Source of the DNA: a virus
IMG/VR virus record: IMGVR_UViG_3300003885_000043
Coordinates: 1-23,838 of that record
Reading direction: 5' to 3' (one strand)
DNA length: 23,838 nt
The notes under the pieces are model-generated. The model had not been told where the DNA came from. It made no database searches and saw nothing but the letters and a program-made list of their open reading frames with translations. A program made the position numbers and the translations under genes. Of this stretch, positions 393 to 8,106 are shown piece by piece. Each line of letters starts with the position of its first letter. Positions within the stretch are counted from its first letter, which is position 1.

Positions 393-626
393 TTAGTTGC
401 ACCTCTTCATAGCCCGTGGGCTCTTGGTCACTATGTGCCCTCGCTTGATCCGCTGCGAGCCTTCCCAGCAGTCCGAGCCGTACCAACTCTCGACCCGCTT
501 GACCTGGAACGAGAACTGGTAGAGCACCTGCCCTGGCACGGCCGTGTAGCAGTAGGACGCGCCGGTTGCGCTGTAGCCGCACAGGCCGGCTAGGCCGAGG
601 GTTGTGATGATCCAAACGTATGTCAT
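393..626 (-). CDS. Small membrane-anchored protein (77 aa), lysis-type candidate
   Basis: The 77-residue protein starts MTYVWIITTLGLAGLCGYSA. A hydrophobic stretch of about 15-18 residues at the extreme N-terminus could be a signal anchor. The rest is a soluble, basic, aromatic tail ending RAMKRCN, with cysteines at Cys16, in ASYC, in GSDC and near the C-terminus. The start at 626 is chosen because its ATGA overlaps the stop of the upstream gene; an in-frame ATG at 689 would overlap that gene by more than 60 bases. A one-span membrane protein in the same operon as a peptidoglycan peptidase could be a holin or spanin component, but no family signature is visible, so this is inference from context. 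Confidence 0.6.
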   Translation of the reverse strand: MTYVWIITTLGLAGLCGYSATGASYCYTAVPGQVLYQFSFQVKRVESWYGSDCWEGSQRIKRGHIVTKSPRAMKRCN

Positions 627-805: not shown

Positions 806-975
806 TCGCCTAGCCCCAGCTTGCGGCGGATTGCTTCCCACTCGTAGATATCTTCAGTTGTGTCTTGGCGATTCCACCAGACTTCGCGCTGCTCCAGCTT
901 GGCAATGCGAGCTTCAAGCGATGCAATCTCCCGTGCTGAATCCATGATGTCGTCTTGATCGTCTTCGTAGCTCAC
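802..975 (-). CDS. Short coiled-coil protein (57 aa)
   Basis: A GTG start at 973-975 overlaps the upstream stop by 4 bases (GTGA). An internal ATG ten codons later (MDSAREIASLE) is the alternative start. The protein is acidic at the N-terminus (SYEDDQDDI). A heptad-like helix follows (IASLEARIAKLEQREVWW), then a second helical segment (YEWEAIRRKLGLGE). This looks like a small coiled-coil oligomer. No function can be assigned. It sits between the zinc-ribbon gene and the 60-aa gene in the minus-strand chain. Confidence 0.55.
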   Translation of the reverse strand: MSYEDDQDDIMDSAREIASLEARIAKLEQREVWWNRQDTTEDIYEWEAIRRKLGLGE

Positions 976-1220
976 TCGAAAATCCCCCGTCTTCGGTACG
1001 CGACGTTCCGGCAGGCTCCGCCAAGACACATCGTCGCGTCCTTGCGACGCTTCCGGCCGCTGGGTCGATGAATAGGCAGTTGCTTGTCGCAGATGATGCA
1101 GTAGCGGACGAATTTGAGCTCTTGCATCTCGTCTATGCAGCGGTAGCAAACGATCCAATCGCGGTGTCTGACTGTTTCGCTCTCATGGGCGGATTCTCCG
1201 CAGCCGTAGCAAGCCACCAT
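972..1220 (-). CDS. Double zinc-ribbon small protein (82 aa)
   Basis: The ATG at 1218-1220 shares one base with the TGA of the M15 peptidase (TGATG), so the two are translationally coupled. The 82-residue product has two cysteine sets. Cys4-x2-Cys7 pairs with Cys25-x2-Cys28 (ACYGC and VCYRC), and Cys41-x2-Cys44 (YCIICD) pairs with Cys65-x4-Cys70. A basic stretch (SGRKRRKD) lies between the last pairs. This predicts two small zinc-binding modules, typical of phage regulatory or nucleic-acid-binding mini-proteins, but no specific family is recognised. A longer reading frame extends upstream to 1802, but it lies antisense-shifted through the M15 gene and is not credible. Confidence 0.7.
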   Translation of the reverse strand: MVACYGCGESAHESETVRHRDWIVCYRCIDEMQELKFVRYCIICDKQLPIHRPSGRKRRKDATMCLGGACRNVAYRRRGIFE

Positions 1221-1717: not shown

Positions 1718-1745
1718 TTGATCTATCCCCCCACCACGGTATTAT
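1718..1745 (+). promoter_or_regulatory. Candidate sigma70-like promoter for the rightward genes
   Basis: TTGATC (1718-1723) and TATTAT (1740-1745) match the -35 and -10 consensus at 4/6 and 5/6 positions with a 16-base spacer. Transcription would start near 1752 and give a leader of about 125 bases before the first plus-strand gene at 1877. This is the best promoter match in the only sizeable divergent gap of the window. Confidence 0.5.
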
Positions 1746-1854: not shown

Positions 1855-1870
1855 CCCTATATAGATAGGG
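1855..1870 (+). promoter_or_regulatory. Palindrome overlapping the first plus-strand ribosome binding site
   Basis: CCCTAT and ATAGGG form a 6-bp inverted repeat around ATAG, with a perfect CTATATAG palindrome inside. The right arm runs into the purine tract GGGGGAGAG directly before the ATG at 1877. In RNA the hairpin would sequester part of the Shine-Dalgarno sequence. In DNA it could be an operator. Confidence 0.35.
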
Positions 1871-1876
1871 GGAGAG

Positions 1877-2077
1877 ATGAAGGTCGACGGGTTTGCGCTG
1901 GGACTGTGCCTGATTCTTCTGACGGCCGGCTTGACGCTGGGAGGCGCTGTCTGGCTCGCCACGCCGGCCCAGTGCCAGGGGGACTGCCTCCCTACCTTCT
2001 GTGGCTTTGACGCCGACTGCCCCGGCCCCTGCCGCTGCTACGTGCCTCAGGGCAAGGCCACCGGGGAGTGCTTCTAG
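1877..2077 (+). CDS. Secreted or membrane-anchored cysteine-rich knottin-like mini-protein
   Basis: A 66-aa protein with a short basic start (MKVDG), a hydrophobic segment at residues 6-28 and a possible cleavage near A28 or A31. A compact domain follows with cysteines at 33, 37, 42, 48, 52, 54 and 65. The spacing C37-x4-C42-x5-C48-x3-C52-x1-C54-x10-C65, with an Asp before C48, matches the central x5-x3-x1 pattern of inhibitor cystine knots such as squash trypsin inhibitors. The loops differ in length and a seventh cysteine is present. Disulfides would require the periplasm or cell surface, agreeing with the N-terminal segment. It is the first gene of the rightward operon, behind a GGGGGAG tract. 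The target is unknown, and a non-knottin Cys-rich protein is possible. Confidence 0.65.
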   Translation: MKVDGFALGLCLILLTAGLTLGGAVWLATPAQCQGDCLPTFCGFDADCPGPCRCYVPQGKATGECF

Positions 2078-2078
2078 G

Positions 2079-2282
2079 ATGGGGCTGCTCCGCTGGCTGC
2101 GACGCCGCCGCCTGAGAAGGCTCCTCAAGCAGTACGTCACCCTAAAGGATGGGAAGCTCCATCCTCTTAGCGAGAGCGACCTCGACCCGCCTCTGCGCCA
2201 AAAAACCGACGCTGCGCCGGGGTCAGCTTTCGGCCGTGGACGCTCCCATCGGCAAGGATCTTCTTCGCCTTCCGAGGAGTGA
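2079..2282 (+). CDS. Small basic hypothetical protein (67 aa)
   Basis: The reading frame starts MGLLRWLRRRRLRRLLKQY, one base after the previous TAG. The first 20 residues form a strongly amphipathic Arg/Leu helix, and the remainder is polar and Ser-rich, ending SSSPSEE. A GGGGAG tract about 10 bases upstream could be its binding site. It could bind nucleic acid or a membrane surface. I do not recognise it. A competing frame (2149-2577) overlaps it but has shadow-type composition. Confidence 0.5.
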   Translation: MGLLRWLRRRRLRRLLKQYVTLKDGKLHPLSESDLDPPLRQKTDAAPGSAFGRGRSHRQGSSSPSEE

Positions 2283-2285
2283 CAG

Positions 2286-2603
2286 ATGGGCTCCGAGGCT
2301 TCTTTTTCTTCATGCCCCGAGTGTGGCCAAAGACCACGCCGCGCGCGAGGCCGGCGCTGCTCCGAATGCCATGCGGCCTACATGCGCCAATACCGCGAAA
2401 ATCACGGCGGCGAGTACCTGTATCTGGGCAAAAGAGCCAAAAAGCGTGCCAAGATCCGCTCCATGCTCCGATCCAGAATCGCCCGAGGCAGCCTCAAACG
2501 GCTCCCGTGTGACAGATGCGGTCACAAACAGGCTGCCATGCGGGTGGAGAATTACGCCAAGCCACTCGAAAGCCTGATTTTCCGGTGTCTCGGCTGTCGG
2601 TGA
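2286..2603 (+). CDS. HNH-like zinc protein with altered active-site region (105 aa)
   Basis: An N-terminal zinc ribbon has Cys10-x2-Cys13 and Cys25-x2-Cys28, followed by the AAYMRQYREN block common in small phage zinc proteins. A basic middle (KRAKKRAKIRSMLRS) leads to a second set, Cys75-x2-Cys78 and Cys101-x2-Cys104, with YAKPLESL between. Relatives usually read H-H-x-D-Y-x-K-P-L at that point; here the sequence is MRVENYAKPL, so the expected histidines are missing. It probably binds DNA or protein without HNH nuclease activity. GAGGAG lies about 7 bases before the ATG. It sits just before the terminase genes, where phages often place HNH proteins that act with terminase. Confidence 0.65.
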   Translation: MGSEASFSSCPECGQRPRRARGRRCSECHAAYMRQYRENHGGEYLYLGKRAKKRAKIRSMLRSRIARGSLKRLPCDRCGHKQAAMRVENYAKPLESLIFRCLGCR

Positions 2604-2652
2604 CGGCCGGGAGGCCCTTCTGTGCTACCTCAAAATGCAGAGGAGCGCGTGG

Positions 2653-3360
2653 ATGCCGAGGCCGACCGAGAAACAGAGCCGGGCCATCGAGCTTCGTGAG
2701 AGCCTCGAGCCGTCAATGGCATGGCCCGATGTGGCTCGTGCGATGGGAACCACCCCCAAGCAAGCCCGCCAATTCTATCTGCGCGGCAAGAAGCGCGAGA
2801 CGCACGATCTAGGCCGCGACCGGCTCGAAATCAACCCTGGTGTCACGGGCGAAGTGTTGGTCGCCCACTCAGACCCCCTGAATACGACCATCGCGTCGAT
2901 TGCTCGTGATGCCGGGGTTTCCAAACACGTCGCCAATGGCATCATCGAAGCCGCCAAGCGACTGATGCCGGCCCAGGTCGAAACGCTCCGCAAGGTTCAT
3001 ACTGCGCGCCTCCAGGACCTGCTAGACCACAACAGCGACCGCATCCTCGAAGCAATCTCGACCCTCCCGATGGACTCCCTGCAAGCCGAGGGCGTCAAAG
3101 ACCTGTCGATTGCCATGTCGGTGCATCTCGAAAAGCGCGCCCTGCTCCGCAAGGAGCCCACACAGCGCATCCAGGTCGAAGACCGCCGCCACATGAACGA
3201 GCTGCTAGAAGCCGTCCAGGACGAGATCCTGCGCCGTGGCCTCGAAGTCGAGGTCAACGAGTTCACGCAGGAGCAGGCCGTCGTCGATGGCGAGCTCAAC
3301 ATCTTCGAGCGCAACAAGGTCGTCGATGGCGAGATCGTAGAAGGCCCGCCGCATGGCTGA
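2653..3360 (+). CDS. Probable terminase small subunit (DNA recognition)
   Basis: A 235-aa protein with two predicted helix-turn-helix segments: WPDVARAMGTTPKQARQF near residues 26-43, and IASIARDAGVSKHVANGI near 79-96. A long helical oligomerisation region follows (LQDLLDHNSDRILEAIS onward), with a charged beta-prone tail. This agrees with a terminase small subunit that binds the packaging site and assembles on DNA, and it sits 283 bases upstream of the large subunit. ATG 2653 is preferred over 2635 because AGAGGAG at 2639-2645 is 7 bases before it. No sequence-level family hallmark is visible, so another DNA-binding role is possible. Confidence 0.68.
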   Translation: MPRPTEKQSRAIELRESLEPSMAWPDVARAMGTTPKQARQFYLRGKKRETHDLGRDRLEINPGVTGEVLVAHSDPLNTTIASIARDAGVSKHVANGIIEAAKRLMPAQVETLRKVHTARLQDLLDHNSDRILEAISTLPMDSLQAEGVKDLSIAMSVHLEKRALLRKEPTQRIQVEDRRHMNELLEAVQDEILRRGLEVEVNEFTQEQAVVDGELNIFERNKVVDGEIVEGPPHG

Positions 3361-3643: not shown

Positions 3644-5380
3644 ATGGCGTTTCAAAGCATTAGCTCGTTAAACGAGCTGACCGCGAAAGATGTCTGCAAG
3701 CTGTCGCGGCAAGACTTCAAGCGCGTCGTCACGCAGCTTCTCGAAGTCCACGCCGACGACCGCCGCGAGAACGACCTTCGCTACTACAAGCCGGTTAGCG
3801 AACACGCGAAGCAGATCCATCTCTCGACCAAGAAGACGGTAGGTGTCGGTGGGGGCAACGGCAGCTCCAAAACTGAGACGTGTCTCGTGGATATGGTGAT
3901 GCTCGCTACCGGCATCATTCCCGAGTCTCTTCAAGACGATATCCCGCCCGAACGTGTGTCGGGTGGACCCTTCCAATGCCGCGTCGTGTGCGTGTCATTG
4001 ACCAGCACGATGTCCACTATCTTGCTGCCCAAGCTCCAGTGGTTTCATTGGACTGGTGTGGACGCTCCCGGCGGCAAGCGTGGCCACTGGGGATGGGTTC
4101 CGCGTAGCCATCTAGTCGATGGACAGTGGGACAAGAGCTGGAGTGAGAAGCTGCGCGTACTTCGGATCAAGTATTTCGATCCCGTGTTGGGACGCTTCAA
4201 CGGCGAGTCTTCCATCCAGTTCATGTCCTACGATCAAGAGCCACAGAGCTTTGCCTCGGGCGACTATCATCGCGTGCTGTGTGACGAGCCACCTAGCCTG
4301 CCAATCTGGACGGAGAATGAAGCGCGTACCATGCGCGTCAATGGCCGCATGATGATGGCCATGACGTGGCCCGACGATCCCGTGATCCCGGTGGCCTGGA
4401 TCATCGACCAAATCTATGAGCCCGGGATGCGCGGCGATGATGTGAATGTAGACTGGTTCGAGCTGTTCACGACCGACAACCCCAACCTCGATCAAGAGGC
4501 CGTAGCGATCCAGGCCGAGCAGTGGGACGAGGAGATGCGCAGAGTCCGCGTCTACGGCCAGCCCATTCACTTCAGCAACCTCGTGCATCCTTTGTTCACC
4601 GAGCAGGAGAAGACGTGGTGTTTTGCGTGCGGCTCGACGCAGGTGCTGAATGAGGACCTGTGCTTCAAGTGCGGGTCTTCTGAGACGGCCTACTACAACC
4701 ACGTAGAAGACCGCGAGATCGACACTCAGCTTCCAACGATCTGGCTGCTTGACCCACATCCCCGTAAGCCGCACATGTTCATGTGGGCGCAAATCCTGCC
4801 CAGCGATGACATCGTGGTGATCGCAGATGGCAAGTGCGATGGAGACTGCACCGATGTCTACGACTACGTTCGTGCCTTCGAGACTACGAACAGCATCAAC
4901 GTCACCCGACGAATCATCGACCCTTCGATGGCACGGCAGCCTGCCGGACAGCACCGGGAAATTTCCTGGCAGGATGAGTTCGAGGACGCCGGGCTACGTC
5001 TCGACCGCGGGAACAACAGCGACGTGGGACGAAAGCGACTCAACCAGTACCTCGCCCCTGACCCTCATACACTTCGGCCACGCATCCATTTTCGGCCTCA
5101 GTGCAAGGAGCTGATCTACCAGATGAAGCGCTTTATCTGGGAGGACTACAAGAAGATCCAGGAGAAGGCGCAGAAGCAGAAGACCCGCGATATGAACGAC
5201 GACTATCCCGACCTGCTGAAGTACCTGATGAACTCCGATCCCACGTTCACGTTCGCATCGCACGGCAGCACCATCATTCGCCGGCATCAGGGCAACCGCA
5301 GCGACAAACGCCGGATGCTCGAGCAGCGGCGTATGCGTGAAGGTCGGCGTGAAATCCACCACTCCACAGGAGGTCGATGA
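3644..5380 (+). CDS. terL: Terminase large subunit with zinc-ribbon insert
   Basis: This 578-aa DNA-packaging motor has an N-terminal ATPase and a C-terminal RNase H-like nuclease. The Walker A region is GGNGSSKT at residues 70-77, with Ser where Gly is common. Walker B is VLCDEPP at 211-217, with Asp214 and catalytic Glu215. The coupling motif is MAMTWPDD around 238-245. Nuclease acidic positions are Asp370 (IWLLDPHP), Asp426 (RRIIDPSMA) and Asp519/520/523 (MNDDYPDLLKY). A zinc-ribbon, Cys326-x2-Cys329-x10-Cys340-x2-Cys343, is inserted between the two domains. The tail is very basic. It follows the preceding gene after 9 bases with a weak ribosome binding site. The end overlaps the next gene at TGATGATG. 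Confidence 0.95.
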   Translation: MAFQSISSLNELTAKDVCKLSRQDFKRVVTQLLEVHADDRRENDLRYYKPVSEHAKQIHLSTKKTVGVGGGNGSSKTETCLVDMVMLATGIIPESLQDDIPPERVSGGPFQCRVVCVSLTSTMSTILLPKLQWFHWTGVDAPGGKRGHWGWVPRSHLVDGQWDKSWSEKLRVLRIKYFDPVLGRFNGESSIQFMSYDQEPQSFASGDYHRVLCDEPPSLPIWTENEARTMRVNGRMMMAMTWPDDPVIPVAWIIDQIYEPGMRGDDVNVDWFELFTTDNPNLDQEAVAIQAEQWDEEMRRVRVYGQPIHFSNLVHPLFTEQEKTWCFACGSTQVLNEDLCFKCGSSETAYYNHVEDREIDTQLPTIWLLDPHPRKPHMFMWAQILPSDDIVVIADGKCDGDCTDVYDYVRAFETTNSINVTRRIIDPSMARQPAGQHREISWQDEFEDAGLRLDRGNNSDVGRKRLNQYLAPDPHTLRPRIHFRPQCKELIYQMKRFIWEDYKKIQEKAQKQKTRDMNDDYPDLLKYLMNSDPTFTFASHGSTIIRRHQGNRSDKRRMLEQRRMREGRREIHHSTGGR

Positions 5381-5685: not shown

Positions 5686-8106
5686 ATGGCCTTTGACCTC
5701 GATATTCAGGCCGACCCGCAGGAGCTGTTTCAGGACCCGGACCTGAAGACCGAACGCCGCCGCTCCACGTCACGGATGCGAAAGAGCAAGCGCCAGGAGC
5801 TTGCGAACCGGGTGATCGTATTCCACACGCAGGATCTGCAAGACCGCTACAACGACGACGAGATGCGGCTGCAACGCTACGCGAAGTACCGCAACTGGAC
5901 CGAGGGCACGGACTTTCCCTGGGAAGGAGCTTCGGATCAGGCCGTGCCGGACATGATGACCAGCTCGCTGCGGATTCAGGACTCGCTGCACAACTCGGTG
6001 ATGTCGTCGCGTCCCAGCGTCACGAGCAAGGCCACCAACGACAGCGACGAGGAGCGGCAGGACAAGATCGACCAGATGCTCGATTACCAGTTCTTTGTCG
6101 AGCAGGAAGGCGAGAACATCATTGGCGAGATGGCCGACGCTTTTGTCAACGATGGAGTAATCACGGCCTTCGTAGCGTGGGTGCGTGACGTGCGGCCCAA
6201 CACCACCTTGCGGCGCTTCATTCGAGAAGATCCTCCGGGCACCATGCCCGTTCAGGTGTTCCGCGACCTGCTGCGTGAGCACTACTCCACCTACAACCAC
6301 TATGCGCTGGACGAGGAGATGTGGGACTGGGAGCTGAAACGCAAGAAGCCCGTCCGACGCGACGAGGAGCCCATCCGAATCTCGTTCTACCACGATGATG
6401 CGGTGCCCGACGAGTGGGAAATGCAGATCAACGAGGATACGGTGGTCTACGAGGGGCCGCGGGTGCTCATCAAGGACTACGACGATGTGTTTCACCCGCC
6501 GCGTTCGGCCAACTTGCAGATCCCCTCGCCAGCCAATCCGGATGGTGCAACCCACGTTCTGATCGTCGACTACCCCTCGATTGACGAAATCGAGCGGCTG
6601 ATCGACGATGGCACCTACGACCTCGTGCCAGACGAGCACATCGCCAAGATCAAGAAGGCAAGGCTTTCGCGCGACGACCTCAACCAGGCCAAGGAGCAGA
6701 AGGATCTGATCTCGGGCCGCACCACGCACTCCGAGCCCAAGGACGACACGCACGGCACACTGACCCGAATCCTGTGCTTCGATATGTACGACATCGACAG
6801 CGACGGCGTGAACGAAGACATGGTGTTCTGGGTCATCCTGGAAACCGAGACGTTGCTGAAATCCCAACGCCTCGGCGAGGCGTTCCCGTCCAAAGACGGC
6901 CCCAGCCGGCCTTTTGCCGAGTCGAGCTTTTTGCCCGTCAAGGGACGCCGCGAGGGCATCAGCCACCTCGAGCAGATGGAAGGGCTCCACGATCTCACCA
7001 AGCAGCTCGTCGATCAGACCGTCGACAACGGCACGCTGGCCAATGCTCCGATTGGCTTCTACCGCGCCGCGAGCTCGATGAAGCCCGAGCGGCTGCGCAT
7101 GTTCCCGGGCGACATGATCCCGGTGTCCGATCCCAACACCGATGTCTCGTTTCCCAAGATGGGCCACGAGTCCCAGTCCTTCGGCATCAACATGCTGGCC
7201 GTCACCGACCAGATGAAGGAGCGGCTGTCTCTGGTTGGCGATCTCCAACTAGGTAGGGTGCCCTCTGGCAAGTCCAGTGCGCTGCGCACCATCGGCGGGA
7301 TGCAGACCGTCCTATCTCAGGGAGAGGCACGGCCCGAGCGCAACCTGCGCCGCTTCTACATGGCCTACACCGCGATCTACGCCAAGATGCACGACCTGAA
7401 CCGCCAGTTTGCCCCCGATCAGAAGCGCTTTCGCATCTACGGCTACACGGAGGAGGACCAGGACCCCTACGCCAGCGTGAACCGGGGCACGGACCTCGAT
7501 GTGGCAATGGAGTTCGATTTCCACGCCAACGTACTCAACTCGTCCAAGGAGGCCCTACAGCAGGGCATGGGGCAGTTGATGGGGACCTACCTCCAGCCTG
7601 CCTTCATTCAGGCCGGGCTGACCACGCCTCGCACGATCTACAATCTAGGTAGGGACTTCGCGCGCTATCAGGGCCAGAACCCCGACGGCAAGTACCTCGA
7701 AAAGCCCCATCCCGAGGCCGGCCTGCCCAAGATCAGCTACGAGGAGGCGATCACCTACATCCTCTCGGGTCGAAAGCCCCACGGCCTGCCGATCGAGCCT
7801 GCGCCCGAGCACCTTCAGAAGCTCCAGGAGTTCGTCTCGGACCCGGTGCGCATCCGAATGCTCAACGACAACGGGATGCAGATGCTTCAGGAGTACATGC
7901 GGGAGATTGCGGGCAGGGCGCAGCAGGAGCAGCAGCAGCAGGCACTCGCCCAAGCCGCCCAGCAGGGGCAAGGTGCCCCAGGCGCCCCGGCTCCCACAGC
8001 GCAACCGGGGGAGAACTCCCCCACTCCGGTGCAAGGTGACGAGCTGCTCGATGAGTCCCTGCCAGGGGCTGGCGGCGGAGCGAATCAGGGGGTGCCGGGT
8101 GTCTGA
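5686..8106 (+). CDS. Portal protein (large, 806 aa)
   Basis: The portal is the dodecameric ring through which DNA enters and leaves the capsid. The N-terminal block FPWEGASDQAVPDMMTSS near residues 77-94 is the usual portal entry motif. A long alpha/beta core follows, with an aromatic acidic region and a helical stem region (SLVGDLQLGRVPSGKSSAL near 514-532). The C-terminal part contains a Gln/Ala/Pro-rich low-complexity stretch at about 743-775 and a Gly-rich end. At 806 aa it is longer than the T7 portal and in the size range of P22-like portals with C-terminal extensions. AGGAGG at 5671-5676 lies 9 bases before the ATG, which abuts the previous TAG. Its position after the terminase supports the call. 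Confidence 0.88.
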   Translation: MAFDLDIQADPQELFQDPDLKTERRRSTSRMRKSKRQELANRVIVFHTQDLQDRYNDDEMRLQRYAKYRNWTEGTDFPWEGASDQAVPDMMTSSLRIQDSLHNSVMSSRPSVTSKATNDSDEERQDKIDQMLDYQFFVEQEGENIIGEMADAFVNDGVITAFVAWVRDVRPNTTLRRFIREDPPGTMPVQVFRDLLREHYSTYNHYALDEEMWDWELKRKKPVRRDEEPIRISFYHDDAVPDEWEMQINEDTVVYEGPRVLIKDYDDVFHPPRSANLQIPSPANPDGATHVLIVDYPSIDEIERLIDDGTYDLVPDEHIAKIKKARLSRDDLNQAKEQKDLISGRTTHSEPKDDTHGTLTRILCFDMYDIDSDGVNEDMVFWVILETETLLKSQRLGEAFPSKDGPSRPFAESSFLPVKGRREGISHLEQMEGLHDLTKQLVDQTVDNGTLANAPIGFYRAASSMKPERLRMFPGDMIPVSDPNTDVSFPKMGHESQSFGINMLAVTDQMKERLSLVGDLQLGRVPSGKSSALRTIGGMQTVLSQGEARPERNLRRFYMAYTAIYAKMHDLNRQFAPDQKRFRIYGYTEEDQDPYASVNRGTDLDVAMEFDFHANVLNSSKEALQQGMGQLMGTYLQPAFIQAGLTTPRTIYNLGRDFARYQGQNPDGKYLEKPHPEAGLPKISYEEAITYILSGRKPHGLPIEPAPEHLQKLQEFVSDPVRIRMLNDNGMQMLQEYMREIAGRAQQEQQQQALAQAAQQGQGAPGAPAPTAQPGENSPTPVQGDELLDESLPGAGGGANQGVPGV

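What the first reader, a model, noticed from the sequence alone, without database searches (positions are those of the whole stretch)
1877..2077. Phage-encoded cysteine-rich mini-protein with inhibitor-cystine-knot spacing
The mature part has seven cysteines, with the run x5-x3-x1 between C42, C48, C52 and C54 and an Asp before C48, as in squash-type knottins. An N-terminal hydrophobic segment would deliver it to an oxidising compartment. A secreted knottin-like protein as the leading gene of a phage operon is unexpected and could act as a surface-exclusion, protease-inhibiting or host-envelope-targeting factor.
Basis: partly seen in the sequence, partly recalled or inferred. Interest (0 to 1): 0.62.

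Follow-up and report, generated by a model that had tools for sequence, protein, structure and literature searches.

The report
Phage-encoded exported squash-type knottin-like mini-protein
This phage carries a gene for a tiny exported protein whose conserved cysteines and predicted shape match the knotted mini-proteins of squash seeds, and at least three other unrelated phages (probably four) carry versions of it, pointing to an unnamed family whose target is still unknown.

Summary
The ORF at 1877-2077 is as described: 66 codons, an N-terminal hydrophobic segment, then seven cysteines with the run C42-x5-C48-x3-C52-x1-C54. No library names it (Pfam, NCBIfam, PHROGs, PADLOC). Degenerate DNA scans of IMG/VR found four further phage contigs coding short proteins with the same layout. 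All have a hydrophobic leader, Ala just before the first Cys, seven invariant cysteines with core spacing 4-5-3-1-10, and Gly-x-Cys at the end. In leave-one-out tests four of the five resemble the others beyond their cysteines; the fifth (L167) only shares the cysteine frame. AlphaFold on the five-member alignment gives pLDDT 82.6. Foldseek's best solved matches are squash trypsin inhibitors (MCTI-A: 0.6 A rmsd, TM 0.75 by target, E 1.7). The family profile, run against all PDB sequences, returns almost only squash-scaffold knottins, best E 0.038. The reactive loop of squash inhibitors is shortened and variable, so canonical trypsin-type inhibition is unlikely. My reading is an exported, disulfide-knotted ligand of a host-envelope protein, most likely for superinfection exclusion (about 35%). 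The fold is well supported but not proven; the function is inferred.

The parts
1718..1745 (+). sigma-70-like promoter match in the divergent intergenic region
   Evidence: TTGATC-16-TATTAT, 9 of 12 matches; consensus match only
1867..1876 (+). purine-rich AGGGGGAGAG just upstream of the ATG (likely ribosome-binding region)
   Evidence: read from sequence
1877..2077 (+). 66-codon ORF of the exported seven-cysteine knottin-like protein
   Evidence: family
1892..1957 (+). N-terminal hydrophobic segment, residues 6-27 (signal peptide or signal anchor)
   Evidence: sequence; best 15-residue Kyte-Doolittle mean 2.33
1970..2074 (+). predicted mature part, residues 32-66 (possible signal-peptidase I cut after T-P-A31)
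   Evidence: Ala at this position in all five members; inference
1973..1975 (+). codon of C33, seventh, juxtamembrane cysteine; conserved, at variable distance (x2 to x5) from the core
1985..2071 (+). six-cysteine core C37-x4-C42-x5-C48-x3-C52-x1-C54-x10-C65
1220..1663 (-). divergent neighbour: endolysin (phrog_465, E 6.7e-20)
   Evidence: Pfam M15 only weak
2079..2282 (+). next gene of the operon, 67-aa basic protein, no family; starts 1 base after the stop of the knottin-like gene
2286..2603 (+). 105-aa CxxC zinc-ribbon-like protein, weak HNH/endonuclease resemblance only
2635..3360 (+). probable small terminase subunit (by position)
   Evidence: position before large terminase; no family match
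3644..5380 (+). large terminase (relatives 47-52% identical in other viral contigs)
5686..8106 (+). SU10-type portal protein
   Evidence: PF23899, E 3.9e-26

Best explanation
Shown by sequence: the gene encodes a small protein of a previously unnamed phage family with a hydrophobic export leader and seven invariant cysteines. Well supported by prediction: the mature ~35 residues fold as a squash-type knottin (C1-C4, C2-C5, C3-C6 of the six-cysteine core), and the extra N-terminal cysteine C33 is left over, perhaps for a disulfide-linked dimer or a bond to a partner. Inferred: it goes through Sec to the periplasm, is oxidised by the host Dsb system, and works as a rigid, protease-proof ligand that binds and jams a host-envelope protein. 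The most likely use is blocking a receptor or DNA-entry route so that further phages cannot infect (superinfection exclusion), in the manner of the periplasmic T5 protein Llp but on an unrelated scaffold. My estimates: exported seven-cysteine family about 0.85, knottin topology about 0.7, exclusion function about 0.35.
For: Family: L038 and L133 were found by scans with forced D/F/P positions; L198 and L167 by a scan that forced only the six core Cys and a Gly. Of 58 open matches to that last pattern, exactly the five family members combine a hydrophobic leader, a stop within 12 residues and a seventh upstream Cys; a profile of the first three scores L198 29.8 and L167 17.5 bits, best control 2.5. 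Leave-one-out with Cys kept fixed: window, L038, L133 and L198 beat 500/500 shuffles of the mature part. Fold: adding the four relatives raised pLDDT from 71.5 (one sequence) to 82.6, with all five models at 79-83; Foldseek's best PDB hits are squash inhibitors, MCTI-A rmsd 0.6 A, TM 0.75 by target, probability 0.82. The profile of the mature part picks almost only squash-scaffold knottins out of 177,635 PDB sequences, and no EGF domain. Export: hydrophobic leader and Ala before the first Cys in 5 of 5. Not a membrane-active cationic peptide: net charge -7 to 0. Gram-negative host suggested by the small single-domain endolysins (147, 143, 136 aa) encoded in three of the contigs. Precedent: T5 Llp is a small exported phage protein with a disulfide that binds FhuA from the periplasm and blocks infection (PMC9586334).
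Against: Foldseek E-values (1.7 and worse) and profile E-values (best 0.038) are not significant by themselves; the protein is very short. The 5-3-1 spacing was the search criterion, so resemblance to squash knottins in that run is partly built in. Disulfide pairing was not observed. Function has no direct evidence: gene neighbourhoods differ (packaging/endolysin region in the window and L038; recombination genes in L167 and L198; undefined small genes in L133). The host is unknown. Seven is an odd number of cysteines. L167 is not distinguishable from Cys-fixed shuffles (55/500).
Confidence: 0.5

Rival explanations
1. It is an inhibitor of a host periplasmic protease, using the knottin scaffold as squash inhibitors do, to protect phage envelope proteins or to block a protease-based defence.
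For: Best structural and profile matches are serine protease inhibitors of the squash family.
Against: The squash reactive loop (C1-x6-C2 with Lys/Arg at P1) is here C1-x4-C2 with LPTF, VPSY, AGPR, PSFT, KTIE: two residues shorter, not conserved, basic only in L133 and L198. A non-canonical mode or another loop (the 10-residue loop C54-C65) is not excluded.
Confidence: 0.17
2. It is a lysis-timing or lysis-helper protein (antiholin-like or endolysin regulator) with a membrane segment and an oxidised periplasmic domain.
For: It lies back to back with an endolysin in the window and about 1.3 kb before an amidase-type endolysin in the same operon in L038.
Against: In L167 the amidase is about 3.4 kb away on the opposite strand, and L198 and L133 have no lysis gene recognised nearby; in the window the two genes are divergently transcribed.
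Confidence: 0.15
3. It is a secreted peptide that acts outside the cell, against competing bacteria or grazers, and benefits the infected or lysogenic host.
For: Knottin folds are often secreted effectors; a GG-leader peptide from Tenacibaculum (L112) carries a near-identical cysteine frame 5-5-3-1-10.
Against: The peptide is neutral to acidic, unlike cationic membrane-active peptides; no exporter, immunity gene or lysogeny module is seen next to it.
Confidence: 0.12
4. The six cysteines form another small fold, such as a short EGF-like (tenascin-type) domain, not a cystine knot.
For: C-x-C-x8-G-x-C at the end resembles EGF endings; the top viral-library fold hit is an EGF-like protein of a cedratvirus (probability 0.96 but rmsd 6.7 A).
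Against: The x3 between C48 and C52 is very short for EGF; the profile search hit no EGF chain of the PDB; the PDB fold search was led by squash knottins.
Confidence: 0.15
5. Chance ORF with an accidental cysteine run.
For: Only one identical copy exists in the collection, and high-GC DNA is full of spurious Cys-rich frames.
Against: Relatives in unrelated phages with conserved leader, seven Cys and extra residues; codon usage and frame statistics.
Confidence: 0.03

Closest known systems
Squash serine protease inhibitors (Pfam PF00299; MCTI-A, MCoTI-II, EETI-II), knottin fold
   Same: C2-x5-C3-x3-C4-x1-C5 spacing, the D-x-D-C-P-G-x-C-x-C string in the window protein, a short helical turn at FDADC, best predicted-structure overlay
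   Different: loop 1 is 4 not 6 residues and lacks the P1 site; last loop is 10 not 5 residues; extra N-terminal cysteine; phage gene with an export leader; no significant Pfam match
T5 Llp superinfection-exclusion lipoprotein (PMC9586334)
   Same: small exported phage protein, disulfide-stabilised, proposed to work from the periplasm by binding an envelope protein
   Different: Llp is a lipoprotein with a Cys11-Cys58 disulfide and is not known as a knottin; no lipobox at C33 here (A-Q-C); this parallel is one of proposed function, not of ancestry
Tenacibaculum GG-leader peptide in L112 (Bacteroidota)
   Same: cysteine frame C-x5-C-x5-C-x3-C-x-C-x10-C with CSVDSDCPESCKC; weak Pfam Squash match E 0.023
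   Different: double-glycine leader, not a Sec-type leader; only six cysteines; from a bacterial genome assembly; profile score to the family only 9.5 bits
Tenascin-type EGF-like domains
   Same: six cysteines with C-x-C and a C-terminal G-x-C
   Different: longer C3-C4 loop, different pairing (1-3, 2-4, 5-6) (general knowledge); not hit by the family profile

Membership tests
Knottin (inhibitor cystine knot) fold | six cysteines in knottin order with compatible spacing | tested here: met
   C37-x4-C42-x5-C48-x3-C52-x1-C54-x10-C65, same in all five relatives (x10 was forced by the scan for L167 and L198 but not for L038 and L133)
Knottin (inhibitor cystine knot) fold | small triple-stranded sheet with knottin backbone | tested here: met
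   predicted only: pLDDT 82.6, strands at 10-11, 23-24, 32-34; overlay on MCTI-A 0.6 A rmsd, TM 0.75 by target, E not significant
Knottin (inhibitor cystine knot) fold | disulfide 3-6 crossing the ring of 1-4 and 2-5 | not testable with these tools
   model coordinates not exposed; needs disulfide mapping or NMR
Squash serine protease inhibitor family (PF00299) | Pfam profile above its cut-off | tested here: not met
   no match for the window protein, whole or mature part
Squash serine protease inhibitor family (PF00299) | reactive loop C1-x6-C2 with basic or hydrophobic P1 next to Ile | tested here: not met
   loop 1 is x4: LPTF; differs in every relative
Squash serine protease inhibitor family (PF00299) | C2-x5-C3-x3-C4-x1-C5 with Asp at third position of the x5 loop | tested here: met
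   GFDAD, AFDHD, MFDVD, RFDIQ; not met in L167 (YNSAG)
Phage superinfection-exclusion lipoproteins (Llp/Cor type) | lipobox with lipidated Cys | tested here: not met
   sequence before C33 is T-P-A-Q; Gln at -1 and no L-[AS]-[GA]-C; other members also lack a canonical lipobox
Phage superinfection-exclusion lipoproteins (Llp/Cor type) | blocks infection through a receptor | not tested
   needs experiment

The most novel reading that the evidence does not exclude
A family of virus-encoded knottins of bacteria: phages of several unrelated lineages carry a Sec-exported, squash-type cystine-knot ligand with an extra covalent-link cysteine, used to jam a host-envelope protein, with loops 1 and 5 diversified as the binding surface.
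Probability: 0.35. Interest if true: 0.75.

Novelty: new variant of a known kind. Interest (0 to 1): 0.55.

Why it matters
Knottins are best known from plants, arthropods and molluscs. A small family of exported knottin-like proteins in phages, absent from the protein-family libraries checked here, would add a new scaffold to the tools phages use at the host envelope, and a natural bacterial-periplasm knottin of interest to protein engineers. No paper on phage knottins was found in the held open-access library, which is not the whole literature. The claim is cheap to test: a 35-residue peptide, disulfide mapping and a binding partner.

Tried and rejected
Direct homology searches with the window protein gave only itself or insignificant hits: Microbacterium phage helicase E 4, and Paracoccus plasmid E 0.8, a frame overlapping larger unrelated genes. 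The pattern DxDCPGxCxC in viral contigs gave 17 other loci, all spurious frames or unrelated large proteins. The pattern C..D.DCP..C.C in GTDB genomes gave 56 loci and no member of the family. The relatives' proteins against INPHARED phages: nothing convincing. About 1,090 bacterial genomes from three phyla with the family profile: no convincing member; best in Pseudomonadota E 0.0014 with stops inside, and without a positive control these blanks are weak. Terminase and portal relatives (L003-L017) do not carry the gene as far as their contigs reach. Papers matching 'knottin' and phage genome that I opened were false matches to 'knotting'. Chance ORF was considered and rejected. Canonical squash-type trypsin inhibition was considered and disfavoured on loop 1.

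Full report
OBSERVATION. The ORF at 1877-2077 exists exactly as written. It starts after a purine-rich stretch, has the codon usage of the phage's large genes in its own frame only, and carries a cysteine run that shuffles of the window almost never produce. It is the first + strand gene after a divergent endolysin (phrog_465, E 6.7e-20). It is followed one base later by a 67-aa basic protein, then a zinc-ribbon-like protein, a probable small terminase, the large terminase and an SU10-type portal. The window is a 23.8-kb virus record. The only near copy, L001, is identical over 7,843 bases and adds no evolutionary information.

FINDING RELATIVES. Ordinary searches fail: Pfam, NCBIfam, PHROGs and PADLOC give nothing, and tblastn of phages and plasmids gives only chance hits. 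I therefore scanned IMG/VR with degenerate DNA patterns. DxDCPGxCxC gave only spurious frames. C-x2-D-x-D-C-P-x2-C-x-C gave L038. C-x-F-D-x-D-C-x3-C-x-C gave L133. Both are short proteins with an N-terminal hydrophobic leader, two more cysteines upstream and a Gly-x-Cys ending that the patterns had not asked for, and both show the same unforced spacing C-x4-C ... C-x10-C. A last scan asked only for the six core cysteines in 4-5-3-1-10 spacing and one Gly.

CONTROL FOR ASCERTAINMENT. Among the 58 open frames that match the last pattern, exactly five combine a hydrophobic leader, a stop within 12 residues and a further cysteine within six residues upstream: the five family members. A sixth frame with a short tail and moderate hydrophobicity is low-complexity and lacks the cysteine. 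A profile of the first three scores L198 at 29.8 and L167 at 17.5 bits; the best control has 2.5. In leave-one-out tests with cysteines held in place, the mature parts of the window protein, L038, L133 and L198 beat all 500 shuffles; L167 does not (55 of 500), so L167 shares the cysteine frame but its common descent is not shown. For L038 and L133 part of this resemblance (D, F, P) was selected by the scans; for L198 it was not.

ANATOMY OF THE FAMILY. Invariant: C33, C37, C42, C48, C52, C54, G63 and C65 in window numbering. The core spacing is 4-5-3-1-10; the distance from C33 to C37 varies from 2 to 5. All five have Ala directly before the residue at or preceding the first cysteine (T-P-A|QC, G-D-A|EC, S-L-A|C, P-A-A|DC, S-Q-A|KC), which fits signal-peptidase I cleavage just before the cysteine domain. 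That is an inference; the leaders are long enough to be anchors. No canonical lipobox is present. Net charge of the mature parts is -7 to 0.

FOLD. AlphaFold on the window's residues 29-66 alone gives pLDDT 71.5, and its weak Foldseek hits are mostly knottins. With the five-member alignment of mature parts, pLDDT rises to 82.6, with all five models between 79 and 83. The best PDB matches are squash trypsin inhibitors: MCTI-A at 0.6 A rmsd, TM 0.75 by target length, probability 0.82, and several others. E-values are above 1, as expected for 35 residues, so the rank and the coherence of the list carry the weight. Independently, the profile of the mature parts, run against 177,635 PDB sequences, returns almost only squash-scaffold knottins and their engineered derivatives (best E 0.038) and no EGF domain. 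The 5-3-1 run was a selection criterion, so part of this agreement is built in. I could not read the sulfur positions, so the crossed topology is inferred. The viral fold library offers EGF-like proteins as an alternative, with a poor overlay.

CONTEXT AND FUNCTION. In the window and L038 the gene heads the packaging operon with an endolysin next door (L038's amidase is phrog_822, E 8e-25, and its portal phrog_1216). In L167 and L198 it follows an exonuclease and a RecT- or Erf-type annealing protein. In L133 it sits among unassigned small genes. It is therefore most likely a mobile accessory gene, not a structural or packaging part. Small endolysins without extra domains suggest Gram-negative hosts, where a Sec leader plus Dsb oxidation would give a folded periplasmic peptide. 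A neutral-to-acidic, rigid, disulfide-locked exported peptide with variable loops is best read as a ligand of an envelope protein. T5 Llp shows that a small disulfide-bonded periplasmic phage protein can jam a receptor and exclude superinfection (PMC9586334). Direct evidence for this function here is nil, and I give it about 35%. Canonical protease inhibition is disfavoured because loop 1 is two residues shorter than in squash inhibitors, is not conserved, and has no basic P1 in the window protein. Lysis regulation is possible given two of five neighbourhoods. A secreted effector is possible: the Tenacibaculum GG-leader peptide in L112 shows that a near-identical cysteine frame exists in a bacterial secreted-peptide setting.

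VERDICT. It is not a member of the squash inhibitor family in the strict sense. The function is open.

Noticed in passing
L016:9974-12088: Large terminase of a relative is 704 aa because of an insertion of about 150 aa in the Walker A motif (GGGNGA^CLPLDAPVL...VVSN^SKTET) that looks like a mini-intein (weak Pfam Hom_end_hint E 1.9e-4, Intein_splicing E 0.0019).
   Followed up: partly
L014:7820-8080: In the slot upstream of the terminase genes where the window has the knottin-like gene, this relative has a different 86-aa exported-looking protein with a strong hydrophobic leader and four cysteines outside it (phrog_4641, E 0.0026), suggesting a slot for small exported cysteine proteins.
   Followed up: partly
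window 393-626, - strand: Second small exported-looking ORF with cysteines (MTYVWIITTLGLAGLCGYSATGASYCYTAVPG...), no family match.
   Followed up: partly
L112, about 1593-1775, - strand (Tenacibaculum MAG): Double-glycine-leader peptide with squash-like cysteine frame CSVDSDCPESCKC; weak Pfam Squash match E 0.023. Looks like an unnamed bacterial secreted knottin-like peptide.
   Followed up: partly
window 975-1217, - strand and 2286-2603, + strand: Two zinc-ribbon-like small proteins with CxxC pairs flank the endolysin and knottin-like gene; neither has a confident family.
   Followed up: no
L129, L130, L131, L139: A recurrent 111-codon frame (CNFDDDCRFNCGCW followed by a membrane segment) shares part of the cysteine run but has the opposite layout; possibly another membrane cysteine protein or a spurious frame.
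   Followed up: no
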